Assembly: GCF_000152985.1 (NCBI RefSeq)
Contig: NZ_CH672395.1
Location: 62,001-126,000 of the forward strand
From: Leeuwenhoekiella blandensis MED217
Lineage (GTDB): Bacteria > Bacteroidota > Bacteroidia > Flavobacteriales > Flavobacteriaceae
DNA length: 64,000 nt
Reading direction: 5' to 3'
Program-made: the position numbers and the translations under genes
Notes under the pieces: generated by a model
Told to the model about the DNA's origin: nothing
Seen by the model: the letters and a program-made list of their open reading frames with translations, nothing else
Databases searched by the model: none
Shown here: positions 7,213-54,000 of the stretch, piece after piece
Layout: the number at the start of each line of letters is the position of its first letter
Position numbering within the stretch: position 1 is the stretch's first letter

Positions 7213-7240
7213 AAGAGCGTAAAACGCTTGTTTTATTTGG
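7213..7240 (+). terminator. weak terminator-like hairpin after bat operon
   Basis: AGCGT (7216-7220) pairs with ACGCT (7224-7228) across a 3-nt loop and is followed by a T-rich run. The stem is short, so termination here is only suggested. The rest of the space to 7423 shows no gene or recognised element. Confidence 0.4.
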
Positions 7241-7423
7241 GTTATGTTGATTCTGAAACACATCTGCCCAAGATATTCCTGTATCCAAATTGGATTTTTT
7301 AGTTTAAGAGAGCTACATAATTTCTATTTTTAGAATCTCTTTAAGAGATAAAGACCGATGTAAGGCTTAGTTTATATAATTTTAAGCGGGCTATGGTCTG
7401 ACTTTTAACTGAAAACAATTACT

Positions 7424-8053: not shown

Positions 8054-8060
8054 AATTTAT

Positions 8061-8095
8061 AAAGCGTAAACACTTAGTGTTTACGCTTTCTTTTT
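8061..8095 (+). terminator. strong terminator between carbonic anhydrase and SulP
   Basis: A perfect 13-bp stem (8061-8073 with 8077-8089, loop TTA) is followed by TTCTTTTT-type sequence. It lies 7 nt after the carbonic anhydrase stop, so the SulP gene probably receives only read-through or has its own promoter. Confidence 0.8.
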
Positions 8096-8125
8096 ATTGA
8101 AAGGGTTAACCTAAAAACTAGAGCT

Positions 8126-9718
8126 ATGTTTAAACATTTAAAAAGTGATTTACCCGCAAGTATAGTTGTGTTTTTTGTCGCATTACCTTTATGCTTAGGT
8201 ATTGCTTTAGCTAGTGGCGCACCCTTATTTTCAGGACTTATCGCCGGTATCGTAGGTGGTATTGTCGTGGGTTCTTTAAGTGGATCGCACATTGGAGTTA
8301 GCGGTCCTGCTGCAGGATTATCTGCAATCGTTCTCGTTGCCATAACAACTTTGGGCGGGTATCAAAATTTATTGTTAGCAACAGTATTGGGCGGAGCTAT
8401 TCAGCTTGTATTTGGATTGCTAAAAGCAGGAATTATAGGTTATTATTTTCCTTCTTCTGTAATAAAAGGAATGCTTACCGGGATAGGTATTATTATCATA
8501 CTGAAACAGATTCCGCATTTTTTTGGTTACGATGCTGATCCGGAAGGCGATTGGGCTTTTTTTCAAGTTGATGGGGAGACCACCTTTTCTGAAATAGGTC
8601 GTGTCTTTAACGGGATAAGCCCCGGGGCCACGCTTATAGCCTGTACCGGTATGGCGGTTCTCATACTTTGGGATGCGGTTTTAAGCAAGAAAGGTCGTTT
8701 TTTTAAATTGGTACAAGGACCATTGGTTGCTGTGGTTTTGGGAATTGTATATTACCTCGCAACTCAGGATTCTGAAACGTGGGGCATATCAAAAGCGCAT
8801 TTGGTTAAAGTTCCGGTTCCTGATGATTTTAGTTCGTTTATCGGTCAGTTTACCTTTCCTAATTTTAAGGTTATTGGAGAACCTCAGGTTTGGATCACTG
8901 CGTTTACAATTGCACTGGTAGCAAGCTTAGAAACCCTGCTTTGTGTTGAGGCAACAGATAAATTAGATCCTAAAAAACGTACTACGCCTACTAATCGCGA
9001 ACTTTTTGCTCAGGGCGCGGGAAATATCGTTTCGGGAATGATAGGAGGTCTTCCGGTTACTCAGGTTATTGTGCGCAGTTCTGCAAATATGCAATCAGGT
9101 GGGCAAACCAAAATGGCTGCGATTATACACGGTTTTTTATTGTTAATCTCGATCATTCTTATTCCAAATATTTTAAACTTGATTCCCTTATCGGTATTGG
9201 CTGCAGTGCTTTTGCTTGTGGGGTATAAACTCGCAAAACCTGCTACCTTTAAGCGTATGTGGGTTTTAGGCTGGAAACAATTCATTCCCTTTATCATTAC
9301 CGTTTTGGGTATAGTGTTTACCGATTTGTTGATTGGTATAAGCCTCGGGCTGGGCGTAGGCATTGTGGTGATCTTGATAAAAAGCTATCAGAATTCTCAT
9401 TTTTTGCATTTGAGAAAAGAAGAGGAGACCGGAGTAGATGTGGTTAAAATGACCCTGGCTGAAGAAGTGACTTTTATAAATAAAGGAGCGATTATGAAAG
9501 AACTGAATAGGCTAGAGCCCAACACTTTTCTAGAAATAGATGTGCGAAAAACACAGTATCTAGATCAAGATATTATAGAGATCTTAGATGATTTTAGCTT
9601 TAGGGCCAAAGACAAAAATATCAATGTGGTTATCATTTCAGAGCGAGGTACTGTTGAGAACCCCGAGAGTTATGAAGAGTTTTTTAAGAGAGAAAAGCAT
9701 TACAAGCCCGTGTCTTAG
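8126..9718 (+). CDS. SulP-family anion transporter with STAS domain
   Basis: A 530-residue inner-membrane transporter. About 10-14 hydrophobic segments occupy residues 10-420, starting with the typical SulP opening (DLPASIVVFFVALPLCLGIA), and a C-terminal STAS domain covers about 440-525. SulP proteins move sulfate, bicarbonate or other anions. The adjacent carbonic anhydrase favours bicarbonate/Na+ symport over sulfate, but substrate specificity cannot be read from the sequence. The start ATG lies 31 nt after a terminator. The gene converges on the cvpA-like gene with only 1 nt between the stops. Confidence 0.87.
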   Translation: MFKHLKSDLPASIVVFFVALPLCLGIALASGAPLFSGLIAGIVGGIVVGSLSGSHIGVSGPAAGLSAIVLVAITTLGGYQNLLLATVLGGAIQLVFGLLKAGIIGYYFPSSVIKGMLTGIGIIIILKQIPHFFGYDADPEGDWAFFQVDGETTFSEIGRVFNGISPGATLIACTGMAVLILWDAVLSKKGRFFKLVQGPLVAVVLGIVYYLATQDSETWGISKAHLVKVPVPDDFSSFIGQFTFPNFKVIGEPQVWITAFTIALVASLETLLCVEATDKLDPKKRTTPTNRELFAQGAGNIVSGMIGGLPVTQVIVRSSANMQSGGQTKMAAIIHGFLLLISIILIPNILNLIPLSVLAAVLLLVGYKLAKPATFKRMWVLGWKQFIPFIITVLGIVFTDLLIGISLGLGVGIVVILIKSYQNSHFLHLRKEEETGVDVVKMTLAEEVTFINKGAIMKELNRLEPNTFLEIDVRKTQYLDQDIIEILDDFSFRAKDKNINVVIISERGTVENPESYEEFFKREKHYKPVS

Positions 9719-9719
9719 G

Positions 9720-10250
9720 CTAGGCCGACTCATAGTTAAGCTCCTCTTCATCCAGAGCATCCTCAAATTCTTCAACCTCTCTTAAAATGCTAGGTAAAAA
9801 CGCCGGTCCCAGCGGTTGAATAGTGTTGTAGAGTACCGAGTTTTCTCTGGTTTCCTCATCAATAAGGCTGTTGGTCATTGCCGAGAAAAACATCATCAGC
9901 ACGCTTAAGATAAAAGCAGATTTTAATAAACCGAATACCCCTCCCAGAATTCTATTTACGATACCCAACATGGCAAGAGAAGCAACCTTGGTAAGCAGTC
10001 TTCCCGCAAGCGTAATGACCACAACGATAATAATAAATGTCACAGCAAAAGCCGTCAGGTTTATCGCGTGCTCACTCCAGTCTACTTTTTCATTAAGAAA
10101 ATCTACCGCATAGTACGAAAAGTGAATAGCGCCATAAACACCTAAAATCAAAGCGATTAATGATGCGATTTCAATAAGAAGTCCGTTTTTTAAACCTTTA
10201 AAAAGGCCTAATACGAGCACGATTCCTAAGATGATATCCAAGTAGTTCAT
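9720..10250 (-). CDS. CvpA family membrane protein
   Basis: A 176-residue protein with four predicted membrane segments (about residues 4-20, 27-48, 65-85 and 100-122) and an acidic tail. The opening MNYLDIILGIVLVLGLFKGL is typical of the CvpA family (named for colicin V production; also linked to envelope homeostasis). A minus-strand TATCTTTA box lies 5 nt upstream of the start and is divergent from the promoter of the next gene. The cellular role is unknown. Confidence 0.82.
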   Translation of the reverse strand: MNYLDIILGIVLVLGLFKGLKNGLLIEIASLIALILGVYGAIHFSYYAVDFLNEKVDWSEHAINLTAFAVTFIIIVVVITLAGRLLTKVASLAMLGIVNRILGGVFGLLKSAFILSVLMMFFSAMTNSLIDEETRENSVLYNTIQPLGPAFLPSILREVEEFEDALDEEELNYESA

Positions 10251-39994: not shown

Positions 39995-40002
39995 CAAAGA
40001 TA
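39995..40002 (-). promoter_or_regulatory. -7 box, start-deciding, for the 39161-39970 gene
   Basis: Reads TATCTTTG on the minus strand, an exact match, 24 nt upstream of the ATG at 39970. A TTG start at 39997 would fall inside it. Confidence 0.6.
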
Positions 40003-40124
40003 GTAAAAATGCAGTTTTAACCTAAGATTGTATTTCTGTTGTAAATTATATAATAGATATAATAAAAATGAGGTATGTATATTAAGAATTTCTAAAATTT
40101 AGATACTAATTTTTATCAATATCA

Positions 40125-40132
40125 TATATTTG
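40125..40132 (+). promoter_or_regulatory. -7 box for gdhA
   Basis: TATATTTG matches TAnnTTTG exactly, 46 nt before the gdhA ATG. The upstream -33 element is not distinct. Confidence 0.55.
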
Positions 40133-40178
40133 CACCGCCTTAGAGCATTTAAAATTATAAATTCAAAAAAACATTATA

Positions 40179-41522
40179 ATGACAGATAGCATTAAAAATT
40201 TTGTTGATTCTGTTGAGAAAGCTAATCCTAACGAGCCAGAGTTTATTCAGGCAGTGCAGGAGGTGGCAGAAACTGTTATTCCTTTTATAGAAAATAACCC
40301 AAAATACCAAGGCAAAAAATTACTAGAGCGTATGGTTGAGCCAGAACGCGCTATTTTGTTCAGAGTACCGTGGGTAGATGATAAAGGAGAAACGCAAATA
40401 AATAAAGGGTATCGCATAGAATTTAATTCTGCGATAGGACCTTATAAAGGTGGACTTCGCTTTCACCCTTCGGTAAACCTGAGTATCCTAAAATTCTTAG
40501 GTTTTGAGCAGGTGTTTAAAAACAGCCTTACTTCATTACCTATGGGTGGTGGTAAAGGAGGTTCTGATTTTAACCCTCGCGGAAAAAGCGATGCCGAAGT
40601 TATGCGTTTTTGCCAAAGCTTTATGACCGAATTGTACCGTCATATTGGCCCTAATACTGATGTGCCTGCAGGTGACATTGGAGTTGGTGGTCGTGAGATT
40701 GGTTATATGTTTGGGCAGTATAAGCGCATCAAAAATGAATTTACGGGTATTCTTACCGGAAAAGGGTTGTCTTATGGCGGTTCTAAAATTCGTCCCGAAG
40801 CGACGGGTTATGGTAACGTGTATTTCACGAAATATATGTTGAATAACATCGGCGAGAAACTGGCAGGAAAAACTGTAGTTATCTCTGGCTCTGGTAACGT
40901 TGCTCAGTATGCGGCAGAAAAAGCAACACAGCTTGATGCAAAGGTAGTGACGCTTTCTGATTCTGATGGTTTTATTTATGATGAGGCCGGTATAGGAAAA
41001 GAGAAACTCGCTTATATTATGGAAATTAAGAATGAGCGTCGCGGTCGTATTAAAGAATATCTGGATAAATATCCTGAAGCAGAATTTCACGAAGGAAAAG
41101 CACCTTGGGGAATCAAATGTGATATCGCATTGCCTTGTGCTACTCAAAATGAATTAGATCAGGAGGATGCTCAATTGCTGGTAAAGAATGGTGTAATGGC
41201 AGTAGGTGAAGGGGCAAATATGCCGTGTACGCCAGATGCAGTTTCTGTATTCTTAGAAAATAAGATTTTATTCTCTCCGGGTAAAGCTTCTAATGCAGGA
41301 GGAGTAGCGACTTCTGGTCTTGAGATGTCTCAAAACAGTATGCGCTACAACTGGTCTGCAGAGCAAGTAGATAAAAAGCTTCACGAGATTATGTACGATA
41401 TACACAATGCGTGTGTGGAGTATGGTAAGCAGGAAGACGGGTTTGTAGACTATGTAAAAGGAGCGAATATCGCTGGTTTTGTTAAGGTTGCAGATGCTAT
41501 GCTTGCTCAGGGAATCGTATAA
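40179..41522 (+). CDS. gdhA: NADP-type glutamate dehydrogenase
   Basis: A 447-residue hexameric-type glutamate dehydrogenase, converting 2-oxoglutarate and ammonium to glutamate. The substrate-binding region reads GGLRFHPSVN and the catalytic lysine is in PMGGGKGGSDF (about residues 122-132). The GDIGVGGREIGYM segment and the dinucleotide fold VVISGSGNVAQYAAEKA follow. The length (about 450) and motifs fit the NADP-dependent class. Monocistronic, with a -7 box upstream and a strong terminator. Confidence 0.95.
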   Translation: MTDSIKNFVDSVEKANPNEPEFIQAVQEVAETVIPFIENNPKYQGKKLLERMVEPERAILFRVPWVDDKGETQINKGYRIEFNSAIGPYKGGLRFHPSVNLSILKFLGFEQVFKNSLTSLPMGGGKGGSDFNPRGKSDAEVMRFCQSFMTELYRHIGPNTDVPAGDIGVGGREIGYMFGQYKRIKNEFTGILTGKGLSYGGSKIRPEATGYGNVYFTKYMLNNIGEKLAGKTVVISGSGNVAQYAAEKATQLDAKVVTLSDSDGFIYDEAGIGKEKLAYIMEIKNERRGRIKEYLDKYPEAEFHEGKAPWGIKCDIALPCATQNELDQEDAQLLVKNGVMAVGEGANMPCTPDAVSVFLENKILFSPGKASNAGGVATSGLEMSQNSMRYNWSAEQVDKKLHEIMYDIHNACVEYGKQEDGFVDYVKGANIAGFVKVADAMLAQGIV

Positions 41523-41550
41523 AACTTTAGATTTCATAAAAGATTTAGCC

Positions 41551-41583
41551 AAAGGCTTCGGGAGTTAACCGAAGCCTTTTTTT
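41551..41583 (+). terminator. terminator after gdhA
   Basis: AAAGGCTTCGG (41551-41561) pairs with CCGAAGCCTTT (41569-41579), followed by a T run. Confidence 0.85.
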
Positions 41584-41637
41584 ATAAACTTACTCTGGGT
41601 TATATTGTATTTTTAACCTGTGGCTAATGCATCGTTG

Positions 41638-43911
41638 ATGATTAAAAAAAACTTATATCTGTTTATTTTGCTGCTGAATAGTTGCTGTGCTTTTGCTCAG
41701 GAATATTCAGAAGCGTGGACGGCATATTTTTCTTACAATCGCATTACTGCCCTTGCTGAAGCCGATACCCAAATCTATGCGGCAGCACAAAATTCAGTGT
41801 TTAGTTATGATTTGCAAACCAATGAAACGCGTCTTTTTTCTACAGTGCAAGGCCTCGCGGGCGAAGCGATAAGCGCCATTCATTATAGTGACGCTACAGG
41901 TATTTTATTTGTAGGCTACGCCTCCGGACTCATAGATGTAGTGCAACCCGATGCTACAGTGACAACTTTGGTAGCTATTCGCGATAAGCCGGCGATTCTT
42001 CCTTCAGAAAAAAGCATCAACAGTTTTGATGAGCAGGACAACACGCTGTATATCGCTACAGGTTTTGGCATTTCTCTATTTGATCTCTCGCGTCTGGAGT
42101 TTGACGATTCTTATTTTATAGGAAATAACGGAGCGCGTCTCAATATCAAACAAACGGCAATCTTTGGCGATTATATCTATGCGGCTTCACCTGATGGCGG
42201 GCTGCGTCGCGCATTGGTGGCCGATGATAACCTGATCGATTTTCAAAATTGGGAAACTTTAGATCCTACGGGTTGGGAAGGTATTCAAACTTTTGCTGAT
42301 GCGCTTTGGGGTGTAAAAAGCGATCAAAGCTTACAGCGTTTTGACGGAAACAGCTTTACCCTGGCAGCTAATTTAGCGCAACTTCCGGTTTCTTTTTCAG
42401 CTTCAGAAGATGTGCTCTCCATAAGTTTAGGTAGCCAAGTTTTGATCTATGATCTTACCGGAAGTTTGACAACAACGATAAATACTATTGCAGAATATCC
42501 AGACACCTACAATGTTGCATTAACTTCTCAAGGTCAAATCTATTTAGGTACTGAAGCTAATGGGCTTTTGATTTCTTCAACATCAAATGCAACGGCAGCG
42601 CTTCAGGTGTTGCCCGATGGTCCACTGCGCAATGATCCGTTTAGTATTGAAGCCGCGCCGGGCCAACTTTGGGTGGCCTATGGTGATTATTCAGATACTT
42701 ATAATCCATTTCCATTAAAACAGCGCGGACTGAGTCATTTTGTGGTGGATTCCGGTTGGTATAATCTTCCGTTTGATGACTTGTTAGAAACCAACAGCAT
42801 CACCAACATCACTTACAATTCTGAAGACCAGACTCAGGTTTTTATGAGTTCGTTTAACGCCGGTCTCCTTGAAATTGTAGAAGAAGTGCCTTTGCAGCTG
42901 TATGACGAAACCAACAGTGGCTTAAGTGATATCCCTTTTGCGCCGTCTGATGTGCGTATAAACGGAGCTGCTTTTGACCGAAATGGTGTTTTATGGTTAA
43001 CCAACAGCTTGGTCGAAAATGCACTCGCACGCAAAACAGGAAATCAGATTGAAGGTATCTCGATCGCTTCCATTTTGCCTGACTTTGATGCTGTAAATGG
43101 CTATTCTGAATTGGTGGTTGGCAGATTAGGAAATATCTATTTTGGTTCTTCAAACCGAGGCCTCATCGGTTACGATCCGGATGCCAATAGCTTTAGGCTG
43201 CTCAATGCTGAACGGTCTAATTTACCGTCAGATAATGTGCAGTCGCTTGCTGTAGATAATAATGGCGCGTTATGGATTGGTACCAGTTTAGGGCTCCGGC
43301 GGCTTTTTAACCCGGCGCAGATGTTTGAAAATGCCGAAATTCAAACGCAGCCTATAATTATTGAAGAATCAGGAAGCGCTGTAGAATTGCTTAATGACCA
43401 AGTTATTCGAGCCATCGCTGTAGACGGAAACAATAATAAATGGGTAGGAACCGTGTCTAGCGGTGTGTTTTACTTCAGTGCCAATGGTCAGGAAACCTTA
43501 CAACAATTTAATACTACAAATTCGCCGCTTCCTTCAAATAATATTCAAGATATAAGCATTGATGAAGATTCTGGAGAAGTTTATTTTGCAACTCCTCTGG
43601 GCTTGGTTTCTTTTTTGGGTACTGCAGTTGCACCGCAAGAAACTTTGGAAAATGCGCGGGTTTTTCCTAATCCTGTGCGCCCCTCATTTACCGGCAGTGT
43701 TACCATCGATGGACTAACTGAAAACGCCAATGTGAAAATCACCGATCTAAACGGAAATTTGGTTTATGAAGAAGTTTCAGAAGGTGGAAGCATTCAATGG
43801 GATACAACTGCTTTTGGAAGATACCGTGTCGCTTCCGGGATTTATTTTATAATGATCACTGCCGAGGATGCCGTGGAGACCAAAATCGTCAAACTTATGA
43901 TCATTCGCTAA
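41638..43911 (+). CDS. porZ: PorZ, type IX secretion attachment-complex protein
   Basis: A 757-residue exported protein. Signal peptide (residues 1-20, cleavage at AFAQE). Two beta-propeller domains follow (about 25-330 and 340-650, with two-component-regulator-like blades such as VDNNGALWIGTSLGLRRL and VDGNNNKWVGTVSSGVFYF), then a C-terminal domain of T9SS-CTD type (about 670-757, RVFPNPVRPSF, ITDLNGNLVYE, SGIYFIMIT). PorZ delivers anionic LPS to the PorU sortase complex at the cell surface. The ATG at 41638 is preferred over the GTG at 41620. The gene precedes recO with a TAATG overlap, an arrangement often seen in Bacteroidota. Confidence 0.85.
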   Translation: MIKKNLYLFILLLNSCCAFAQEYSEAWTAYFSYNRITALAEADTQIYAAAQNSVFSYDLQTNETRLFSTVQGLAGEAISAIHYSDATGILFVGYASGLIDVVQPDATVTTLVAIRDKPAILPSEKSINSFDEQDNTLYIATGFGISLFDLSRLEFDDSYFIGNNGARLNIKQTAIFGDYIYAASPDGGLRRALVADDNLIDFQNWETLDPTGWEGIQTFADALWGVKSDQSLQRFDGNSFTLAANLAQLPVSFSASEDVLSISLGSQVLIYDLTGSLTTTINTIAEYPDTYNVALTSQGQIYLGTEANGLLISSTSNATAALQVLPDGPLRNDPFSIEAAPGQLWVAYGDYSDTYNPFPLKQRGLSHFVVDSGWYNLPFDDLLETNSITNITYNSEDQTQVFMSSFNAGLLEIVEEVPLQLYDETNSGLSDIPFAPSDVRINGAAFDRNGVLWLTNSLVENALARKTGNQIEGISIASILPDFDAVNGYSELVVGRLGNIYFGSSNRGLIGYDPDANSFRLLNAERSNLPSDNVQSLAVDNNGALWIGTSLGLRRLFNPAQMFENAEIQTQPIIIEESGSAVELLNDQVIRAIAVDGNNNKWVGTVSSGVFYFSANGQETLQQFNTTNSPLPSNNIQDISIDEDSGEVYFATPLGLVSFLGTAVAPQETLENARVFPNPVRPSFTGSVTIDGLTENANVKITDLNGNLVYEEVSEGGSIQWDTTAFGRYRVASGIYFIMITAEDAVETKIVKLMIIR

Positions 43912-44627
43912 TGCTGGTAACTACAAAAGCTATAGTCATTTCGGCAATTAAGTATGGGGAAGCAGACCTTATTGTACGCTGCTTTACAGAAGAAGCCGGA
44001 CTCAAATCGTACATTTTACAGCGTATTTTAAAATCTAAAAAGGGTAAACTGCGCACGGCGATGTTTCAGCCTGCTAGTCAGTTAGAGTTGGTTGCAGTGC
44101 ATAAAGACAAAGGAACCCTCGAGAGTATACGCGAGGCTAAAGTGATTCAACCCTACGTGAGTTTACACACCGATGTGTTGAAGTCAAGCGTGGTGCTTTT
44201 CCTTTCAGAAATGCTGCGCAATGCGATTCAGGAAGAAGAAGAGAACCGAGCACTATATGCGTTTCTGGAGCACGCGTTTTTATGGTTTGATCTACACGAG
44301 CAGACGGCAAATTTTCACCTTTTGTTTTTATTAGAATTGACAAAATATTTAGGTTTTTATCCGGATACTTCAGAGCTGCATCAGCCTCATTTTAATCTGG
44401 AAACCGGAATTTTTGAACCGGTTGAACATTTTTACAGCATTTCCGAAGAAAATTTAAATACGCTCAAACTGCTATTGGGTATAAATTTTGATGCACTTTT
44501 TACCATAAAACTGAATCAAAAAAGGCGCGCAGACTTTATAAATATGCTTTTGGCGTACTATGAATTACATTTACACGGGTTTAAAAAACCAAAGTCACTG
44601 GCTGTGTTAAGCTCCCTTTTTAACTAA
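43911..44627 (+). CDS. recO: DNA repair protein RecO
   Basis: A 238-residue recombination mediator that helps load RecA with RecR. N-terminal OB-fold (MLVTTKAIVISAIKYGEADLIVRCFTEEAG, about residues 1-80), followed by a helical C-terminal part. The start ATG at 43911 shares one base with the porZ stop (TAATG); a longer frame starts inside porZ and is rejected. Co-transcription with porZ and the downstream TonB-dependent receptor is likely, with 9 nt to the next ATG. Confidence 0.92.
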   Translation: MLVTTKAIVISAIKYGEADLIVRCFTEEAGLKSYILQRILKSKKGKLRTAMFQPASQLELVAVHKDKGTLESIREAKVIQPYVSLHTDVLKSSVVLFLSEMLRNAIQEEEENRALYAFLEHAFLWFDLHEQTANFHLLFLLELTKYLGFYPDTSELHQPHFNLETGIFEPVEHFYSISEENLNTLKLLLGINFDALFTIKLNQKRRADFINMLLAYYELHLHGFKKPKSLAVLSSLFN

Positions 44628-44636
44628 CCGTATTTT

Positions 44637-47042
44637 ATGAGATTACCCCTTATTTTTCTCCTTTTTACTTTTTGCTCTGTCGCTGTACAAGCGCAAACTA
44701 TAAAGCTGCTTGACAAGCAGACCAAATCCCCGGTGACTAATGCTGCTTTGTATAACAGTGCACGATCTACCTACGTGGTAAGTGATGAAGAAGGAAACGC
44801 TGACGTGTCTGCCTTCACAAAATCTGAAACTATTTTTATCACCCATGTCTCCCACATCACGCTAAAAACCACAAAGGCGGCAATCGTTTCTGAAGGAAAT
44901 GTGGTTTATTTGGAAGATAACGAGAACCAACTTAACGAGGTGGTGCTTTCGGTGTCAAAATTTGAGCAGGAGTCTAAAGATATCGCCCAAAAAATAGTAA
45001 GTCTGGATGCTGAAGATATTGAGATGAAAAATCCGCAAACAGCTGCAGATTTTCTAAGTCAGAGCGGGCAGGTTTTTGTTCAAAAAAGTCAGTTGGGTGG
45101 TGGTAGCCCGATGATACGTGGTTTTTCAACAAACCGATTGCTGTTGACGGTAGACGGTGTACGTATGAACACGGCTATTTTTCGCTCAGGAAACCTTCAG
45201 AATGTGATCAATATCGATCCCTTTACGATAGATCAAACTGAAGTTATTTTAGGTCCGGGATCTGTGGTGTATGGTAGTGATGCAATAGGAGGTGTGATGA
45301 ATTTTTATACTAAAAAACCGGCCTTTTCTTTTGAAGAAGGTACTGCATTTTCAGGAATGGCGCTTACCCGATATGCGACTGCCAATAATGAAAAAACCGG
45401 TCACATCGACTTCAATATCGGTGCTAAGAAGTGGGCGTTTTTAACTAGCGTAAGCTATTCTGATTTTGACGATCTGCGTATGGGAAGTCACGGCCCTGAA
45501 GATTATTTGCGTCCCGAATATGTGGTGACTGAAAACGGTGTGGATACGGTGGTAGAAAATGACGACCCAAATGTGCAAACGCCCACCGGTTTTGATATGA
45601 TCAACCTTACCCAAAAAGTGCGCTATATGCCCAACAGTATTTGGGATTTTAATCTTGGGTTGCATTACAGCGCTACTTCAGACTATGCGCGTTACGACAG
45701 GCTCACGCGAACCAGAAACGGGCAGCTGCGTTCTGCAGAATGGTATTACGGTCCGCAGTTGTGGTTTATGGGAAATCTTCAAATCGATAAAAAAGGAAAC
45801 GGCGATTTTTATGACGATGCCAAGCTTACTGCGGCAATTCAATATTTTGAAGAGAGTAGAAACGATCGTGATTTTGGCGATTCAATACTATTTACCACGC
45901 AAGAGCAGGTGAACGCCTATTCTTTAGCTCTTGATTTTACTAAGAAAATGGGCTCAAATCAGTTATTTTATGGGCTGGAATATGTGTATAACAAAATTGG
46001 CTCCTACGGAAAGCAAATCGATATCAACACCGGCGACCAGGCAGCAACCGCAACCCGCTATCCAGATGATTCCAGCTGGCAATCACTGGCAGCCTATTTA
46101 AGTGGGCAGTTCAATTTGGCTGAAAGTTTAACCTTGCAAACAGGCGTGCGGTACAATCATATATTGATCGATGCTACGTTTGACGATACTTTTTATGATT
46201 TTCCATTTGAAAAGGCAGATGTAAGCTTCGGAAATTTTACCGGAAATGCCGGCCTGAATTGGCAAACGGCAGAAAATTTCAATCTTAAACTGAATTTGGG
46301 CACAGCATTTAGAGCGCCTAATATTGATGATATCGGGAAAATCTTTGATAGTGAACCCGGGTCTGTGGTGGTGCCTAATCCTGATCTCAAGGCAGAATAT
46401 GCCTATAATGCCGAGTTGGGTGCGGCGTGGCGTATTGATGAAAAATTACGTCTGGATGTCGCAACCTATTACACGCATTTGAACAATGCGCTTGTGCGTC
46501 GTGATTTTAGTCTAAACGGAGCGACAACCGTAGATTATCAAGGTGAGCCAAGTAATGTACAAGCAATTCAAAATGCTGCAAGTGCTGAGGTTTATGGTGT
46601 TGAAGCCGGTTTAGAATATTTGTTTAACAAGAATATAAAACTCACTTCTCAGATCGCTGTTACCGAAGGAAGTCAGGAAGAAGAGGACGGCAGCGAAGCG
46701 CCGTTGCGACACGCGGCACCACTCTTTGGAAATACGCACCTTATTTATCGTATGAAGCGCTGGAAGTTTGACGCGTCTGCAGAATATAACGGGCAGTTTG
46801 AGTATGACGAACTCGCGCCATCGCAACAGGGCAATGCCTATTTGTACGCGCTGGATGCTGATGGTAATCCGTACTCACCGCGCTGGTACACGTTGAATGT
46901 ATACAGTGAATACCAGATCGCACAAAACTGGAAAGCGACCGCCGCTTTAGAAAATATCACAGATCAACGGTATCGCCCGTATTCTTCAGGCATTTCAGCT
47001 CCCGGACGTAATTTAATTATGGCGTTGAAGTATACGTTTTAG
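44637..47042 (+). CDS. TonB-dependent outer membrane receptor
   Basis: An 801-residue receptor. Signal peptide (ends VQAQT), a short carboxypeptidase-regulatory-like domain (about residues 20-95), a plug domain (about 110-230, SPMIRGFSTNRLLLTVDGVR, VYGSDAIGGVMNFYT) and a 22-strand-type barrel ending in LKYTF. The plug motif with NTAIFRSGNLQNV resembles the hemoglobin/transferrin/lactoferrin receptor group, so heme or iron-source uptake is a reasonable guess. No haem gene lies beside it. Its 3' end is duplicated as a broken fragment at 47599-47688. Confidence 0.88.
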   Translation: MRLPLIFLLFTFCSVAVQAQTIKLLDKQTKSPVTNAALYNSARSTYVVSDEEGNADVSAFTKSETIFITHVSHITLKTTKAAIVSEGNVVYLEDNENQLNEVVLSVSKFEQESKDIAQKIVSLDAEDIEMKNPQTAADFLSQSGQVFVQKSQLGGGSPMIRGFSTNRLLLTVDGVRMNTAIFRSGNLQNVINIDPFTIDQTEVILGPGSVVYGSDAIGGVMNFYTKKPAFSFEEGTAFSGMALTRYATANNEKTGHIDFNIGAKKWAFLTSVSYSDFDDLRMGSHGPEDYLRPEYVVTENGVDTVVENDDPNVQTPTGFDMINLTQKVRYMPNSIWDFNLGLHYSATSDYARYDRLTRTRNGQLRSAEWYYGPQLWFMGNLQIDKKGNGDFYDDAKLTAAIQYFEESRNDRDFGDSILFTTQEQVNAYSLALDFTKKMGSNQLFYGLEYVYNKIGSYGKQIDINTGDQAATATRYPDDSSWQSLAAYLSGQFNLAESLTLQTGVRYNHILIDATFDDTFYDFPFEKADVSFGNFTGNAGLNWQTAENFNLKLNLGTAFRAPNIDDIGKIFDSEPGSVVVPNPDLKAEYAYNAELGAAWRIDEKLRLDVATYYTHLNNALVRRDFSLNGATTVDYQGEPSNVQAIQNAASAEVYGVEAGLEYLFNKNIKLTSQIAVTEGSQEEEDGSEAPLRHAAPLFGNTHLIYRMKRWKFDASAEYNGQFEYDELAPSQQGNAYLYALDADGNPYSPRWYTLNVYSEYQIAQNWKATAALENITDQRYRPYSSGISAPGRNLIMALKYTF

Positions 47043-47063
47043 AGAGTTAAAATTTATTGAATA

Positions 47064-47513
47064 ATGTGTCAAATAGAATTGAAATATCTCCAATACTTAG
47101 TTAATATCTGTTCTTGTGAGTTTGAATTCATTTACCATTTTACACAAAACGTAAAAGAATGTTATCCTAAAGCATCAGAGCAAGAAGTTAAGAGTATATC
47201 CTTAATTTTAATGGGTTTGCTCTTGGAAAAAAAGTTTTTACAAGTTTATGATTTCTATTCTCAAGAACCATTGGGTTCAACCACTGAGGATAGTTTGGAA
47301 ACAATTGACAATTTATGGTTTGAGGGAGCTTCATATATTGATTTTATAAGCCTCGTAAATTTTACCCTTCAGGAATGGTTTGTAAATCTGCTAAAAGAAA
47401 AGGGATATAATTTCCAAGATAATTGGCTAGAGTATATAAGTGAACACCTGTGGCTTCAAGATCTTTTAAGGATATCCCAGTCTGATATTCAAAAGGTAGA
47501 AGCAATGCTATGA
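47064..47513 (+). CDS. orphan hypothetical protein A, AT-rich
   Basis: A 149-residue soluble, acidic protein of unknown family, with Trp/Phe-rich segments (LQEWFVNLLKEKGYNF, SEHLWLQDLL). It starts 21 nt after the receptor stop. Codon use is markedly AT-richer than the receptor and recO, suggesting separate ancestry. No toxin or immunity motif was recognised. It lies between the intact receptor and a broken copy of the receptor tail, so it appears to have been inserted or carried with that segment. Confidence 0.65.
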   Translation: MCQIELKYLQYLVNICSCEFEFIYHFTQNVKECYPKASEQEVKSISLILMGLLLEKKFLQVYDFYSQEPLGSTTEDSLETIDNLWFEGASYIDFISLVNFTLQEWFVNLLKEKGYNFQDNWLEYISEHLWLQDLLRISQSDIQKVEAML

Positions 47514-47598
47514 TTTAGATTAAGGCGAAATATAAGACCCGTAGGTAATGTTTAATTTCATCTAAAATATAGTTTTTCAGTTTTTTGTCTAAATGATA

Positions 47599-47688
47599 AA
47601 CATTACCGACCAGCGCTAACGCCCTTATTCTTTTGGGATATCAGCACCGGGACGTAATCTGATTATGGCGTTGAAGTATACGTTTTAG
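47599..47688 (+). pseudogene. broken 3'-end copy of the TonB-dependent receptor
   Basis: Encodes NITDQR-stop-RPYSFGISAPGRNLIMALKYTF-type sequence, equivalent to the last 29 residues of the receptor at 44637-47042. Over 90 nt, 74 are identical; 27 of 29 residues are conserved, and most differences are synonymous. The last 27 nt are identical. A TAA replaces the Tyr codon at 47617-47619. Upstream similarity fades before 47599. It looks like the tail of a diverged second allele or paralogue. Confidence 0.85.
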
Positions 47689-47709
47689 GGTTTTATCAAT
47701 CGATTATAA

Positions 47710-48195
47710 ATGAAATTTGAAACATTACTTGGGAACTCTATTGCTTTTGCAGCATCTTGTATCGGGGAAGAGTTTATAAATAAACCTTTTCAAAATGGCA
47801 CATATTTTTTAGAAAAGGATTCAAGTTACAAGTTGTTTTATGATTCAAGATATAACTGTCTAAGCATTCATGAAAATGATAGAAAGGTTGTTCATTCAAT
47901 AACGGTTCATTTGCTTGAAGTTTTAAATTTTAAAAGTTTCAATTCATTAGTAGCACAGTATGGCGCACCAGATCATATCTGGGTGGCAACTAATACTTCT
48001 ATGATTAGCGAAACGATCGATGATTCTAATCCTGAATTTAAGCAACGTCTAACAAAATCAGAACACGATCTTCGTGAGGGTACTTTTGAAGAAAAGCCGC
48101 TCGTTATCATCTGGAATAAGGGAGATTTTGAGATCAAAGTACTTTTCAGGTACGAACAAAATCAGAGTAAAATTACTTACAGATCTTTAGAGTAA
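47710..48195 (+). CDS. orphan hypothetical protein B, AT-rich
   Basis: A 161-residue soluble protein of unknown family, with segments YGAPDHIWVATNTSMISE and EEKPLVIIWNKGDFEIKVLFRYE. It starts 21 nt after the stop of the receptor-tail pseudogene, exactly the spacing seen between the intact receptor and orphan A. It is AT-rich relative to its surroundings and has no resemblance to orphan A. It converges on the fusion gene at 48205-50751. Confidence 0.68.
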   Translation: MKFETLLGNSIAFAASCIGEEFINKPFQNGTYFLEKDSSYKLFYDSRYNCLSIHENDRKVVHSITVHLLEVLNFKSFNSLVAQYGAPDHIWVATNTSMISETIDDSNPEFKQRLTKSEHDLREGTFEEKPLVIIWNKGDFEIKVLFRYEQNQSKITYRSLE

Positions 48196-48204
48196 ACCTT
48201 CATT

Positions 48205-50751
48205 TTAAACCGGCTTTTGCAATGCCTGCTTGATCACCTCACTCCAGATGATGTAACCTTTTTTGTTGAGGTGCAAGCCGTCTGACATATAGAGTTCGGG
48301 ATTGGGTTTGTCGTCTAGCGAAATCATTTGTGAGAATACGTTAATGAATTGTGCATCCAACCCGGTAATCACATATTCTGAAAGCAGTTCGTTAAGCTCC
48401 ATAAATTGCGGGATGAGATGGGCGCGTTCTACACTTGGTTTTAAGCTGATGACCGCCAGCGGAACTTTAGGATATTTTGCTTTTACCGCTTTGATAAGCT
48501 CTTTAAAATCGGCTAGAACTTCAAGTGGTGTGCGGCCTTGGGTAATGTCGTTTTCTCCGGCATATAAAATTAGCTTCGACGGATTCACATCTTGAAAGAT
48601 TTCCTCAAAATAGTGCAAACACCAGGCATACGTAGAGCCACCAAATCCCAGGTTTAAAGTGTGCATGGGCGCAAGATCTTCTTGCATATGCACCCACAAC
48701 CGCACCGAAGAACTTCCGTAGAAAACGTATAAATCTTCTTGATTTTTCAGTTTTTCAACACGACGACGCAGGCGTTTGATCTCGTTAGCCCACATTACCG
48801 GTGGTTCTTCTTCCGGCACCGCCGAAAAAGTACTGGTCATCAACCTTTTTACTTTTTCGCGAGCTTCGGCCACATAATCGATATACTTTTTTTGATAGTC
48901 TTCCACAAATGCTTTGACCACAACAGGATCGTTTTTAGCTACGTGATCACTCATTTTAAAAGGCTTCAGGATATTGCAGTAAAACAAGGTGTCGTTGATG
49001 CGTTTATCAAAATTTACCAAAACGATCGGGATGATGAGTGGTTCGGTTTTGAGATTTAGAGCGAGGTTAAAGGCGCCTGTTTTAAAAGCGCCGGGAGATT
49101 CTTCAGAAGTGTATGAAGTACCTTCCGGACTGATGATGAGATTCTTTTTGTTTTTTAAAAATTCGCTTGCCGCTGTATAAAAAATACTGCGGTTGCTGGT
49201 TTTGGCAGCGGCTTCAGGCAGTTCAGATTCTTTGGTGTATACGTTGATGTAGCCTAGATTTTCATAATAATTTTGATGTCCGTATTCCTGACCTTGCGCG
49301 ATGCGCACCGTGCGTATGCCGGGCTCACCGTATTTATCATCAAGCAAAACGCTGATAAAATGTGAGTCTAATGTGATCTGAAATTGATTATTCAGCGTGT
49401 AAAATGGATGATTCAATAAGTGGTTGTAAATAAAAATATGCCCTGAATCCTCAGGTAGATTCTCTAAACCTTCAACGTGTACCATTACCTGTTTTAACGC
49501 TTCGCGTGTAGCTTGCGCACAAGCTTTGCGTTTGTGTTGTGGAGTAGTTTCAGGATTGTTTTCGGCGACAGCCTCATAAATAGAGCGCAACGCATTTTTA
49601 AACTGATGTTCGCGCCGATCGTGTTTTAAAAACTCGAGACTCAGTGATGCGATGTGTCGCTCTAGGCTTGAGCCCTGCGTTACTAAATTCTGCAAGGTTT
49701 CATACGCAAGCGCTTTGGTGGTTTGATCTTTTAACAAATGAAATACCGAATGCAGCCCCGAATTTACAGTAAGCCGAGAGCGGTTGTTTTCGATCAATTG
49801 ATATACGGCATCAATGCTGTGCTTACCTAAAAGCGAAGTATATCGAATAAACGCGGCGTTGATTTGATTGCCAATAAGCCAGATGAGGCGGTGGTAAAAG
49901 CGTTTTTTGAGTGAGTCATCTTCTTCCAGAAGTTGGTGCAAATCCAGATGATTGATAAAATATACCGCTGTTTTTTCAGTGGTGATGGCGTTGCAAATGT
50001 CAGGAAGGTTGAGGAGGGAAGACCAGCCAAAAATAAATCCGGAATTAGAAATACTGCGCTGGCTGATGTCTATTTTGCCTTCCATACGCTTGATGGCCAC
50101 CTCGCCGTGAATTAAAATGTATAAACCCTCTGAAGCGCTGTCTTGCGCATAAATGATTTCGTTAGGCTCATAATCACGGCGTTGAACAAGCTTTGCGAGT
50201 TTGTTTAATTGAGGTTCAGAAAACTGATCAAGAAATGGTGATCGCCGCATCAAGTGAATGATCTCTGACTTTTCAATGGAAGGATTCAGGTAAAAGTGTT
50301 CGTCTTTAGGAATTTGAAAACTTTGCGGCCGTAACAAAGAAGCCTGCTTGCTCAATGCATTTTTAAGCAGTTGGTAGTTGGTTTGACAAACCGCGAGAAG
50401 CAGCGTGTTCACTTCTGCAATAGTTGCTTTAAAATCGGTGATCGGCACTTTGTAAAAAGTGGCTTCTTCACTGGCAATTTTTGCGCTAAAGGTATAGCGC
50501 TCCGGTGCAAAAAAACCATTCCAACCTATTGTGGTAAAAACGGTGTCGCTATGTGCGACCTGCACTTCTTGTTCTGCGTTTTGATGTTGCGTGTAAAAGT
50601 CAAGACTGCCTTCAATAAGCCAATAGAGGTGTTTTACTTTTTTATGAATGGTGCAAAGTGTGGCGCCTTTGTGTTGAGAAATCAACTGACCGGTAGGCAA
50701 CAGCTCTTGTAATAATTCAAGCGAAATTTTAGTAGCAGTAAGTGTTTTCAA
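48205..50751 (-). CDS. cNMP-binding x2 / acyltransferase / SGNH hydrolase fusion
   Basis: An 848-residue four-domain protein. Two cyclic-nucleotide-binding domains (about residues 10-125 and 165-290, the second with EGLYILIHGEVAIK and a glycine-rich turn) are followed by a PlsC-like acyltransferase (about 420-640, motif III-like ISPEGTSYTSEESPGAFKTG). A C-terminal SGNH/GDSL hydrolase follows (about 680-848; block I FYGSSSVRLW, block II LGFGGSTY, block III YAGENDI, block V DGLHLNKKGY). The acyltransferase motif I region reads YNHLLNHPFYT, without the canonical HX4D. No membrane span is apparent. The start is TTG at 50751, since no ATG lies nearby upstream. Regulation of lipid acyl exchange by cyclic nucleotides is an inference. 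Confidence 0.85.
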   Translation of the reverse strand: MKTLTATKISLELLQELLPTGQLISQHKGATLCTIHKKVKHLYWLIEGSLDFYTQHQNAEQEVQVAHSDTVFTTIGWNGFFAPERYTFSAKIASEEATFYKVPITDFKATIAEVNTLLLAVCQTNYQLLKNALSKQASLLRPQSFQIPKDEHFYLNPSIEKSEIIHLMRRSPFLDQFSEPQLNKLAKLVQRRDYEPNEIIYAQDSASEGLYILIHGEVAIKRMEGKIDISQRSISNSGFIFGWSSLLNLPDICNAITTEKTAVYFINHLDLHQLLEEDDSLKKRFYHRLIWLIGNQINAAFIRYTSLLGKHSIDAVYQLIENNRSRLTVNSGLHSVFHLLKDQTTKALAYETLQNLVTQGSSLERHIASLSLEFLKHDRREHQFKNALRSIYEAVAENNPETTPQHKRKACAQATREALKQVMVHVEGLENLPEDSGHIFIYNHLLNHPFYTLNNQFQITLDSHFISVLLDDKYGEPGIRTVRIAQGQEYGHQNYYENLGYINVYTKESELPEAAAKTSNRSIFYTAASEFLKNKKNLIISPEGTSYTSEESPGAFKTGAFNLALNLKTEPLIIPIVLVNFDKRINDTLFYCNILKPFKMSDHVAKNDPVVVKAFVEDYQKKYIDYVAEAREKVKRLMTSTFSAVPEEEPPVMWANEIKRLRRRVEKLKNQEDLYVFYGSSSVRLWVHMQEDLAPMHTLNLGFGGSTYAWCLHYFEEIFQDVNPSKLILYAGENDITQGRTPLEVLADFKELIKAVKAKYPKVPLAVISLKPSVERAHLIPQFMELNELLSEYVITGLDAQFINVFSQMISLDDKPNPELYMSDGLHLNKKGYIIWSEVIKQALQKPV

Positions 50752-51023
50752 TAGATAGCAGGTTTTAAGTCCTTTACAAATTATCGCTTTGTGCTCAAAA
50801 AACGGCTTCAGTTACTGCTTCACGCTGCATTTTTATGAATATTGAAATTTGTCATCTTTGTTTTTTGTGATTTGGCAATAAAACACGGCAATGCGTCACT
50901 TTGGATAACGCACGCGCTGCTTTTTCGGAAATCTAAATGGGCATTTTGAATACGCATCTTCACAACAGCTTGCTACTATGTTAAGGCATTCTTTTTATAG
51001 GTTTTTTTCTAATCTAAATTCCG

Positions 51024-51031
51024 TAATTTTG
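51024..51031 (+). promoter_or_regulatory. -7 box for ileS
   Basis: TAATTTTG matches TAnnTTTG exactly, 24 nt before the ileS ATG. The remaining 50752-51055 region has no T-box-like stem loops or gene that I can see. Confidence 0.55.
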
Positions 51032-51055
51032 CACACTTATTAGAAAACGCATATC

Positions 51056-54000
51056 ATGAGCACAAAGTTCCCTGAATATAAAGGACTTGACCTGCCCAAA
51101 GTGGCTGAGGAAATTTTAGCCTATTGGAAGGAAAACGACATATTTGAAAAAAGTATTTCTACGCGTGAAGGCAACGAACCTTACATCTTTTTTGAAGGTC
51201 CGCCATCTGCAAACGGAATGCCTGGTATTCACCATGTTATGGCACGTGCGATCAAGGATATTTTTTGCCGTTTTCAAACCCAGAAAGGAAAGCAGGTAAA
51301 ACGTAAGGCCGGTTGGGATACCCACGGACTTCCTGTAGAGCTTGGTGTGGAGAAAGAATTGGGCATTACCAAAGAAGATATTGGTACTAAGATCAGCGTT
51401 TCAGAATACAACGAAGCCTGTAAAAATGCGGTAATGCGCTACACCGATGTGTGGAACAACCTTACCGAGCAGATGGGTTATTGGGTAGATATGGAAGATC
51501 CCTACATCACCTACAAGCCAAAATACATGGAAACCGTATGGTGGCTGCTTAAGAATATTTACAACCAAGGCCTTATTTACAAAGGCTACACGATACAACC
51601 CTATTCACCAAAAGCGGGTACCGGTTTAAGTTCGCACGAACTTAACCAACCCGGGACGTATCAAGATGTTACGGATACGACGGTAACCGCACAGTTTAAG
51701 GTGATAGAAGACGAGACCTATAAAGCTTCTCCTCTTGCAGCTTTTGATGGAACAAAATATTTGATGGCGTGGACGACCACTCCGTGGACGTTGCCTTCAA
51801 ACACAGCCTTGACGGTTGGTAAGAAAATAGACTATGTTTTAGTAAAGACTTTCAACCAATATACGTTTGAACCTATTCAGGTGGTGATCGCGAAAGCTTT
51901 GGTTGGAAAACAATTCAGTAAGAAATTCTTTGCTGCAGAAAGTGAGGAGGATTTCGCAAAATTCAGTGAAGAAGATAAAAAGATTCCTTATCAAATCCTT
52001 TCTGAATTTAAAGGAAGCGAATTGCTAGAATTGCGATATGAGCCGGTGATCGATTATGTGCAGCCGCACGACAATCCACAGGATGCGTATCGCGTGATCG
52101 CGGGAGACTTCGTAACTACCGAAGACGGTACCGGTATCGTACACACCTCACCAACTTTTGGTGCAGATGATGCGATGGTGGCTAAACAAGCCGAGCCTCA
52201 AATTCCGCCGATGTTGGTGAAAGATGAGAATGGTAATTTGGTGCCGCTTGTAGACTTGCAAGGGCGTTTCCGTCCTGAACTGAAAGAGTTTGGCGGCAAG
52301 TATGTGAAAAACGAATATTACGACGACGGCGAAGCACCAGAGAAGAGTGTAGATGTTGAGATCGCAATTAAACTCAAAGAAGAAAATAAAGCCTTTAAAG
52401 TTGAAAAGTATGTGCACAGTTATCCAAACTGCTGGCGTACCGATAAGCCTATTTTATATTATCCGTTAGATTCCTGGTTCATCAAAGTAACTGATGTGCG
52501 TGATCGTATGCACGAGTTGAATCTGGGCATAAACTGGAAACCAAAAGCAACCGGTGAAGGCCGTTTTGGAAACTGGCTGGCCAATGCTAACGATTGGAAT
52601 TTATCGCGCTCGCGTTATTGGGGAATTCCATTGCCAATCTGGAGAACTGAGGATGGAAAAGAGGAAATCATTATTGGTTCGGTTTCCGAACTAAAAGAAA
52701 AAATTGCTAAAGCTGTAAAAGCCGGTGTGATGGACAGCGATCCATTTGCAGATTTTGTTCCGGGTGATATGAGCGAAGCAAATTATGATTTGATAGACCT
52801 GCATAAAAATGTGGTTGATGAGATCAAACTGGTTTCGCCAAGCGGAAAAGCTATGCGTCGTGAAGCAGATTTGATTGACGTATGGTTTGATAGCGGAAGT
52901 ATGCCGTATGCGCAATGGCACTACCCTTTTGAGAATAAAGAAATGGTTGAAGAAACCTGGCGTAAAGCCGACTTTATCGCAGAAGGTGTTGACCAAACGC
53001 GTGGTTGGTTCTATACACTTCACGCCATCGCAACGATGACTTTTGACGACGTTGCGTATAAAAATGTAGTTTCAAACGGACTCGTTTTAGACAAGAACGG
53101 TCAGAAGATGTCTAAGCGTTTGGGTAATGCGGTAGATCCGTTTACGACGCTCAACACTTTTGGTCCTGATGCAACGCGCTGGTATATGATCAGTAACGCG
53201 AATCCTTGGGATAACCTTAAGTTTGATCTGGACGGAATTACAGAGATTCAGCGTAAGTTCTTCGGAACCTTGTATAACACCTATTCGTTCTTTTCGTTGT
53301 ACGCGAATCTGGATAATTTCACTTATGCCGAAGCTGATATTGAATGGAAAGATAGACCGGAAATCGACCGTTGGATTCTTTCAGAATTACACACGTTGAT
53401 CGCGCAGGTAGAGAAATTCTATTCAGAATACGAGCCTACTAAAGCTACACGTGCAATTTCAGACTTTGTACAAGAAAATCTAAGTAACTGGTTTGTACGT
53501 TTAAGCCGCCGCCGTTATTGGAAAGGCGAGTATGCACACGATAAGATTTCAGCCTATCAAACGCTTTATCAATGTCTGGTAACCGTTGCAAAATTAGGAG
53601 CGCCGGTAGCTCCATTCTTTATGGATCGTTTGTATAAAGATCTGAATGGATTAACCAACAAGGAAGCTGCAGAAAGTGTACACCTCTCAGATTTCCCTGA
53701 AAGCAATACCGCGTTTATAGACACGAGCTTAGAGCATAAAATGCAAAAGGCACAAACGATCTCATCGTTAACCCTTTCGCTTCGCGCTAAAGAAAAAATC
53801 AAAGTGCGTCAGCCTTTGCAGCGCATTATGATTCCGGTGCTTGATGAAGCACAACGCGAAGAAATTATGGCTGTGCAAGACCTGATCAAGTCAGAAGTAA
53901 ATGTGAAAGCGATCGAGCTGATCGATGATGCTTCGGGTATTTTGGTAAAAAATATCAAGCCTAACTTTAAGGTTTTAGGTCCGCGTTTTGGTCGAGATAT

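What the first reader, a model, noticed from the sequence alone, without database searches (positions are those of the whole stretch)
46950..47688. Broken second copy of a TonB receptor tail downstream of the intact receptor
The last 30 codons (29 residues plus stop) of the receptor at 44637-47042 recur at 47599-47688 with 74/90 nt identity, 27/29 residues conserved and the last 27 nt identical. Differences are mostly synonymous, which means the tail evolved under protein constraint before being cut off; a TAA now replaces a Tyr codon. This is more like the tail of a diverged allele or paralogue than a simple local duplication. It suggests that the locus exchanged DNA through homologous recombination or lost a tandem receptor.
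Basis: partly seen in the sequence, partly recalled or inferred. Interest (0 to 1): 0.7.

Follow-up and report, generated by a model that had tools for sequence, protein, structure and literature searches.

The report
Receptor tail scar marks immunity-gene insertion
A marine bacterium carries the cut-off end of an outer-membrane receptor gene as a scar left when foreign DNA, probably a gene protecting against a rival's toxin, was inserted behind the receptor; three related species carry similar scars with other genes, mostly toxin-like.

Summary
The repeat is real: 74/90 nt, 13 of 16 differences synonymous, last 27 nt identical. It is best read not as a lost tandem receptor but as the displaced 3' end of an earlier receptor allele. 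In 4 of 13 genomes of the genus (Leeuwenhoekiella) the same receptor has such a relic downstream, starting at four different codons, with different cargo in between. Among 1572 ORFs of 122 loci only this receptor has tail-only relics; one further tail-only copy lies at a contig end in another genus. L. nanhaiensis has a toxin-like lipoprotein gene plus partner where L. parthenopeia runs on from receptor to the next genes. The receptor is a mosaic: two species with 97-99% identical upstream genes carry receptor 3' parts from two lineages. In the window the cargo is a 149-aa ORF; a 161-aa ORF follows the relic. Relatives of both follow lipoprotein toxins with a common N-terminus and different C-termini, so both are inferred orphan immunity genes. 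Likely route: homologous recombination inside the receptor with a ragged right junction, as proposed for Vibrio T6SS immunity arrays, but anchored in a TonB receptor.

The parts
44637..47042 (+). intact TonB-dependent receptor (801 aa), the recombination anchor; mosaic gene in the genus
   Evidence: nearest NCBIfam models TIGR01785 and TIGR01786, both below their cut-offs
46953..47042 (+). receptor tail repeated by the relic
47043..47063 (+). 21-nt spacer between receptor stop and the 149-aa ORF
   Evidence: sequence
47064..47513 (+). 149-aa ORF, orphan immunity-like cargo; about 32-33% GC against 42-47% in the receptor
47599..47688 (+). relic: displaced last 30 codons of a former receptor allele, with an in-frame TAA
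47689..47709 (+). 21-nt spacer between relic stop and the 161-aa ORF, same length as after the living receptor
   Evidence: sequence
47710..48195 (+). 161-aa ORF, orphan immunity-like, the presumed earlier occupant of the site
48205..50751 (-). 848-aa cNMP-binding/acyltransferase/GDSL protein that directly abuts the relic in L. aestuarii; near full length in 3 of the 10 closer species

Best explanation
The 3' end of this receptor gene is a landing site for imported DNA. Incoming DNA from a relative carries the 3' part of its own receptor followed by cargo. It recombines homologously inside the resident receptor, which stays intact but gets a new 3' part. On the right it is joined without homology. 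When that right junction falls inside the last 25-80 codons of the resident receptor, the resident's tail stays behind as a relic downstream of the cargo. In the window the imported cargo is the 149-aa immunity-like gene; the relic plus the 161-aa immunity-like gene is the earlier state. Shown: the relics, a nearly uninterrupted counterpart, receptor mosaicism, toxin neighbours of both ORF families in other genomes. Inferred: the recombination steps, co-transcription with the receptor (each ORF starts 21 nt after a receptor stop), and protection against rivals' lipoprotein toxins.
For: Relics of this receptor in 4 of 13 genomes of the genus, starting at about codons 723, 746, 773 and 779, with different cargo. 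Of 1572 ORFs in 122 loci, 12 tail hits: the 4 tail-only ones are all this receptor, the other 8 lie in frames open for at least 148 residues upstream. L. nanhaiensis relic plus about 150 nt behind it aligns with the L. parthenopeia receptor tail and what follows (83.5% over 327 nt), then more than 5 kb collinear at 92%. The L. aestuarii relic abuts the 848-aa gene and is nearer to the receptors of the window (63/72) and L. palythoae (64/72), which own that gene at 90% and 88%, than to its own receptor (59/72). L. polynyae and L. aestuarii are 97-99% identical in four upstream genes, yet in receptor nt 1712-2237 one follows the window, the other MAG SP167 (0 of 2000 permutations). Receptor end plus the next 1.3 kb is 93% identical between L. 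aestuarii and SP167 against 65-82% in upstream genes. Cargo is AT-rich. One relative of each ORF (G048, G095) overlaps by 4 nt a lipoprotein toxin; the two toxins share an N-terminus (32%, E 6e-33) and differ in the C-terminus.
Against: A relic of 90 nt cannot by itself tell recipient from donor; 79, 77 and 74 of 90 is a weak ranking. The uninterrupted counterpart is not perfect: L. parthenopeia has about 380 nt more between receptor and next gene. The mosaic is patchy: L. polynyae and L. aestuarii are 93% identical again around nt 1980-2160. One genome per species, so no strain series shows an event. No library recognises the two ORFs and only 6 of 17 places of the 161-aa type and 1 clear of 6 of the 149-aa type abut a toxin-like ORF. 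Illegitimate joining is rare in laboratory tests according to Kirchberger et al., so four relics would need selection or many tries.
Confidence: 0.76

Rival explanations
1. Single-crossover (Campbell-type) integration of a circular molecule that carries a truncated receptor 3' end plus cargo; the relic is then partly donor DNA.
For: Gives the same order receptor-cargo-truncated tail; varying relic starts fit varying fragments; the 27-nt identity between the two tails could be the crossover zone.
Against: No replication or integration gene recognised among the cargo proteins scanned (10 proteins per call, not every small ORF). The last 27 nt differ by one base or none in the L. palythoae receptor and the L. 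aestuarii relic, so the identity may be a lineage trait.
Confidence: 0.12
2. Site-specific integration into the 3' end of the receptor gene by a tyrosine recombinase, with the relic as the displaced side of the attachment site.
For: Displaced gene ends downstream of an insert are a classical sign of such elements (general knowledge, no call).
Against: Relics start at four different codons and span 23 to 79 residues; no integrase recognised in the cargo proteins scanned.
Confidence: 0.03
3. A tandem second receptor was lost, leaving its tail.
For: The relic was under protein constraint (13 of 16 differences synonymous). In another genus G199 has an intact copy and a broken second copy (residues 404-801, frame break near 595) on separate contigs.
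Against: No second near-full-length copy in any of 13 genomes of the genus; the L. parthenopeia state has one receptor; relics in four species with different cargo.
Confidence: 0.05
4. The ORFs are unrelated small genes and the site is only an ordinary hot spot of gene turnover behind a receptor.
For: A beta-lactamase-family protein, small lipoproteins and a receptor/lipoprotein cluster also occupy the site.
Against: Toxin-like lipoprotein genes, intact or in pieces, occur at this site in 4 of the 10 closer species, and both window ORFs have relatives abutting toxin-like genes.
Confidence: 0.2

Closest known systems
Sequential displacement of T6SS effector-immunity modules in Vibrio cholerae, giving orphan immunity arrays (Kirchberger et al. 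2017, PMC5361080; abstract and passages seen)
   Same: New toxin/immunity DNA enters behind a conserved upstream gene and older immunity genes are pushed downstream; the authors propose homology-facilitated illegitimate recombination for it.
   Different: There the anchor (vgrG) belongs to the weapon. Here the anchor is a TonB receptor gene with no known weapon role, no T6SS gene was recognised at the locus, and a piece of the anchor gene itself is left behind.
Orphan CdiA-CT/CdiI and Rhs modules (PMC3150448, PMC3967940; search listing and abstract starts only; details recalled)
   Same: Strings of displaced 3' ends with immunity genes behind a main gene.
   Different: The displaced ends belong to the toxin itself, not to a neighbouring gene.
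SitA lipoprotein polymorphic toxins of myxobacteria (Vassallo et al. 2017, PMC5562445; passages seen)
   Same: Lipoprotein toxin, common N-terminus, variable C-terminus, immunity gene directly downstream.
   Different: Sequence relation was not tested; delivery by outer-membrane exchange was not looked for here.
Acquired interbacterial defence systems of Bacteroidales (PMC10470768, PMC12247911; search listing and abstract starts only)
   Same: Orphan immunity genes against rivals in the same phylum.
   Different: Those protect against T6SS effectors; here the relatives are partners of lipoprotein toxins and the import route is a receptor gene.

Membership tests
Orphan immunity gene of a polymorphic toxin system | homologues sit directly behind a toxin gene | tested here: met
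   161-aa type: 6 of 17 places outside the window (three of the six judged by eye); 149-aa type: 1 clear case (G095) of 6
Orphan immunity gene of a polymorphic toxin system | cognate toxin gene absent at the locus | tested here: met
   only spacers, relic and the two ORFs lie between the receptor and the 848-aa gene
Orphan immunity gene of a polymorphic toxin system | neutralises a toxin | not testable with these tools
   needs an assay
Polymorphic toxin (partners in other genomes) | shared N-terminus with unrelated C-termini, each with its own immunity family | tested here: met
   G048 523 aa and G095 591 aa: residues 1-307 of the former 32% identical, E 6e-33, no C-terminal match; partner genes of different families
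T6SS effector-immunity array (Kirchberger model) | old immunity genes stacked behind a conserved anchor with displaced remnants between | tested here: met
   order receptor, 149-aa ORF, relic, 161-aa ORF; immunity itself inferred
T6SS effector-immunity array (Kirchberger model) | anchor is a T6SS gene | tested here: not met
   anchor is a TonB-dependent receptor; works like it, is not a member
Integrative element in a gene 3' end | fixed core site | tested here: not met
   four relics start at four codons
Integrative element in a gene 3' end | integrase gene in the insert | tested here: not met
   none recognised among the cargo proteins scanned; not every small ORF was scanned
Tandem receptor duplication | second receptor copy in some relative | tested here: not met
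   none in 13 genomes of the genus; one broken second copy in another genus, adjacency unknown

The most novel reading that the evidence does not exclude
The receptor is not a bystander: the lipoprotein toxins of this locus enter rivals through this receptor, so one import event swaps the receptor's 3' barrel part (changing which toxins it admits) and adds the matching immunity gene. The locus would then be a combined receptor-and-immunity exchange module.
Probability: 0.12. Interest if true: 0.82.

Novelty: new variant of a known kind. Interest (0 to 1): 0.5.

Why it matters
The relic is a scar that shows where foreign DNA was joined, which allele was there before and in what order cargo was stacked. 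It extends the idea of stacked orphan immunity genes from secretion-system loci to a TonB-receptor locus in marine Flavobacteriaceae, and points to a family of lipoprotein polymorphic toxins there that had no Pfam match in the cases scanned. If the receptor also admits the toxins, uptake genes and immunity genes would be exchanged as one unit.

Tried and rejected
Tandem receptor loss and site-specific integration: disfavoured as given in the rivals. An 11-bp inverted repeat just before the relic (about 47545-47607) was folded: z-score -0.26, 78 of 200 shuffles fold as well, so no structural claim. The scan found no terminator-like site on the + strand in 46900-48300; 12 promoter-like hits against 5.4 expected are not used. 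No Rfam family reached its gathering score at 40000-52000. No meaningful Pfam, NCBIfam or PADLOC hit for the two ORFs. Single-sequence structure models of the two ORFs are poor (mean pLDDT 45 and 48), so no fold search was made.

Invalid runs: passed an option that tblastn does not take and so reported no tails, even where tails are known; both were discarded and the test redone. In one search one of eight queries (a G048 C-terminal piece) was out of frame and is not used. The loci partly come from the same genomes (L075-L114 and L115-L194 overlap), so 122 loci are not 122 species; three outlying genomes placed in the genus are covered (G009, G012, G011), where no relic was found. One search aligns the L. 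nanhaiensis relic over 82 residues at 74%, over 56 at 89%; I use the latter, which fits the DNA alignment.

One search had listed second matches in G274 and G199 that I had not opened. One search shows a tail-only copy (residues 723-801, preceded by unrelated sequence) 84 nt from a contig end in G274, whose receptor contig ends 736 nt behind the receptor, and a broken second copy in G199. Neighbourhood cannot be shown for either. Confidence in the best explanation was lowered from 0.78 to 0.76 and the tandem rival raised from 0.04 to 0.05.

Full report
1. The observation. The receptor ORF 44637-47042 is a TonB-dependent receptor. Its last 30 codons (46953-47042) recur at 47599-47688 with 74/90 identity, 27 of 29 residues kept, a TAA for a Tyr codon and 27 identical nt at the end; 13 of the 16 differences are synonymous, and 300 base-shuffles of the next 3 kb never exceeded 44/90 at any position. 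So the repeat is real, and the two copies diverged mostly while both coded for protein.

2. Whose genome. G008 has no name here. The window's own species is named by no call; L. blandensis is a guess from recall. G009, G011 and G012 are more distant members (63-66% receptor identity).

3. Relics recur. Searching the receptor in the 13 genomes found tail-only copies in four: the window (29 residues), G002 (23), G004 (56) and G008 (79), each downstream of the intact receptor, 0.6 to 3.9 kb away. Their left ends lie at about codons 773, 779, 746 and 723. A control took every non-overlapping ORF of at least 100 aa in 122 loci (1572 ORFs) and asked whether its tail recurs on the same strand within 6 kb at E 1e-5: 12 hits, of which the 4 tail-only ones all belong to this receptor; the other 8 lie in frames open for 148 to 1418 residues upstream, that is, probably paralogues. 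In the family sample (397 genomes, E 1e-6, which would miss short relics) second matches appeared in G199, G223 and G274 besides the window and G002. G223's is another receptor (27%). G274 has a tail-only copy of 79 residues, preceded by unrelated sequence, 84 nt from a contig end; its receptor contig also ends, 736 nt behind the receptor, so this may be a fifth relic in another genus. G199 has a broken second copy of residues 404-801 on another contig.

4. Which copy is the old one. In G004 the relic and about 150 nt behind it align with the receptor tail of G006 and the sequence behind that (83.5% over 327 nt), after which the two genomes are collinear for more than 5 kb at 92%, G006 having about 380 nt more in the intergenic stretch. 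G006 is thus close to the uninserted state; G004 has a 599-aa lipoprotein gene plus a 185-aa ORF between its present receptor and its former tail. In G002 the relic runs straight into the 848-aa gene. That gene is 90% and 88% identical to those of the window and G005, and the relic is closest to their receptor tails (63/72 and 64/72, against 59/72 to its own receptor). In G008 the relic matches G004, G006 and G010 receptors (206-207/240) better than its own receptor (182/240). So relics look like tails of earlier, different alleles. In G001 there is no relic, but the receptor stop is fused to the middle of a toxin-like gene: from the last bases of the receptor on, 244 nt match the interior of the G004 gene at 93.4%, the same kind of ragged junction.

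5. The receptor is a mosaic. G007 and G002 are 97-99% identical in four upstream genes, yet their receptors are 90% identical. In 180-nt windows starting at nt 1710 and 1800 they are only 77% and 74% alike, while G007 is 95% and 93% identical to the window, and G002 92% and 94% to G010. The best segment is nt 1712-2237; 0 of 2000 permutations clustered the sites as strongly. The pattern is patchy: around nt 1980-2160 the two are 93% alike again. The G002 receptor end plus the next 1.3 kb (a beta-lactamase-family protein of about 440 aa; PF00144 in the G007 copy) is 93% identical to G010, while upstream genes of this pair are 65-82% identical. Homologous recombination inside the receptor therefore appears to carry downstream cargo.

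6. What the cargo is. G004, G002, G008 and G001 have at this site a lipoprotein gene of one family, intact only in G004; lipoprotein signals were read by eye. The pieces of G004, G001 and G008 each contain an HExxH motif (by eye; Pfam SprT-like for G004 only at E 0.09), so a zincin-type toxin is a guess. Each is followed by a small ORF; those of G004, G001 and G002 do not match one another at E 1e-4. The window has two small ORFs and no toxin gene. The 149-aa ORF has relatives in 7 of 395 family genomes including its own, the 161-aa ORF in 14 of 395. Outside the window, 6 of 17 places of the 161-aa type directly follow a toxin-like ORF (G048, G159 and G013 with matching C-termini; G031, G038 and the window genome at 3.80 Mb by eye), and 1 clear case of 6 of the 149-aa type does (G095). 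The G048 and G095 toxins overlap their partners by 4 nt, share an N-terminus (32%, E 6e-33) and differ in the C-terminus, the hallmark of polymorphic toxins with matching immunity genes. This N-terminal type was found in 12 of 393 family genomes, not in the window genome. Immunity is thus inferred from neighbourhood, not shown.

7. Layout in the window. Both immunity-like ORFs start exactly 21 nt after a receptor stop, one after the living tail, one after the relic. GC falls to 32-33% across them, against 42-47% in the receptor. The simplest history: receptor, 21 nt, 161-aa ORF was the earlier state; an import brought a new receptor 3' part with the 149-aa ORF; the right junction fell 30 codons before the old stop; the relic then picked up a stop codon.

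8. Comparison with print. Kirchberger et al. 2017 (PMC5361080, abstract and passages) describe the same logic for Vibrio T6SS loci, name homology-facilitated illegitimate recombination, and note that it is rare in experiments. Vassallo et al. 2017 (PMC5562445, passages) describe lipoprotein polymorphic toxins in myxobacteria and call them, to their knowledge, the first polymorphic toxin system whose toxin is itself a lipoprotein. The held part of Zhang et al. 2012 (PMC3482391, passages) does not contain the word Leeuwenhoekiella. In the rows shown by searches (12 to 15 rows each of longer lists) I saw no paper on this locus or on immunity genes behind a TonB receptor; apart from the three papers named, only titles and abstract starts were seen.

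9. Verdict. The object is a new variant of a known kind: stacked, probably immunity, genes whose import uses a receptor gene as the homologous anchor and leaves receptor tails as scars.

Noticed in passing
L242 (own genome C1:3796000-3808000), about 4700-9720: Between genes that look like pyrH-frr and tsf-rpsB (named by eye) lies an array of toxin-like lipoprotein pieces: a 288-nt unit occurs three times (copies 68% and 94% identical to the first), with small ORFs behind, one a distant relative of the 161-aa ORF. It looks like a main toxin with orphan C-terminal modules.
   Followed up: partly
L240 1501-1737 and L236 737-2737 (G274, another genus): Tail-only copy of the same receptor (residues 723-801) at a contig end, the intact receptor near the end of another contig: a possible fifth relic.
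   Followed up: partly
L234 1501-2692 and L239 (G199, another genus): Broken second copy of the receptor (residues 404-801, frame break near 595) besides an intact one.
   Followed up: partly
L243 1693-1992 and 2700-2999 (G138): A relative of the 149-aa ORF is flanked by two 99% identical 300-nt direct copies of a small neighbouring gene region: another immunity-like gene with duplication of a neighbour.
   Followed up: partly
L244 1807-2106 and 3069-3368 (G269): A relative of the 161-aa ORF is flanked by 98% identical copies of a gene resembling a REP-associated transposase (named by eye), behind a lipoprotein toxin-like N-terminus.
   Followed up: partly
L246 3098-5939 (G048), L245 3279-5500 (G095): Lipoprotein polymorphic toxin plus immunity-like gene pairs in Flavobacteriaceae, no Pfam match for the parts scanned; the N-terminal type in 12 of 393 family genomes.
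   Followed up: partly
L071 8597-10126, minus strand (L. aequorea): Receptor stop fused directly to the middle of a toxin-like gene, followed by a 203-aa lipoprotein-like ORF.
   Followed up: partly
window 47545-47607: 11-bp inverted repeat whose right arm runs into the start of the relic; no folding support, origin unexplained.
   Followed up: partly
L066 4855-4943 (L. marinoflava): Only decayed last residues of the 848-aa neighbour gene remain, so this gene too is gained and lost at the site.
   Followed up: no
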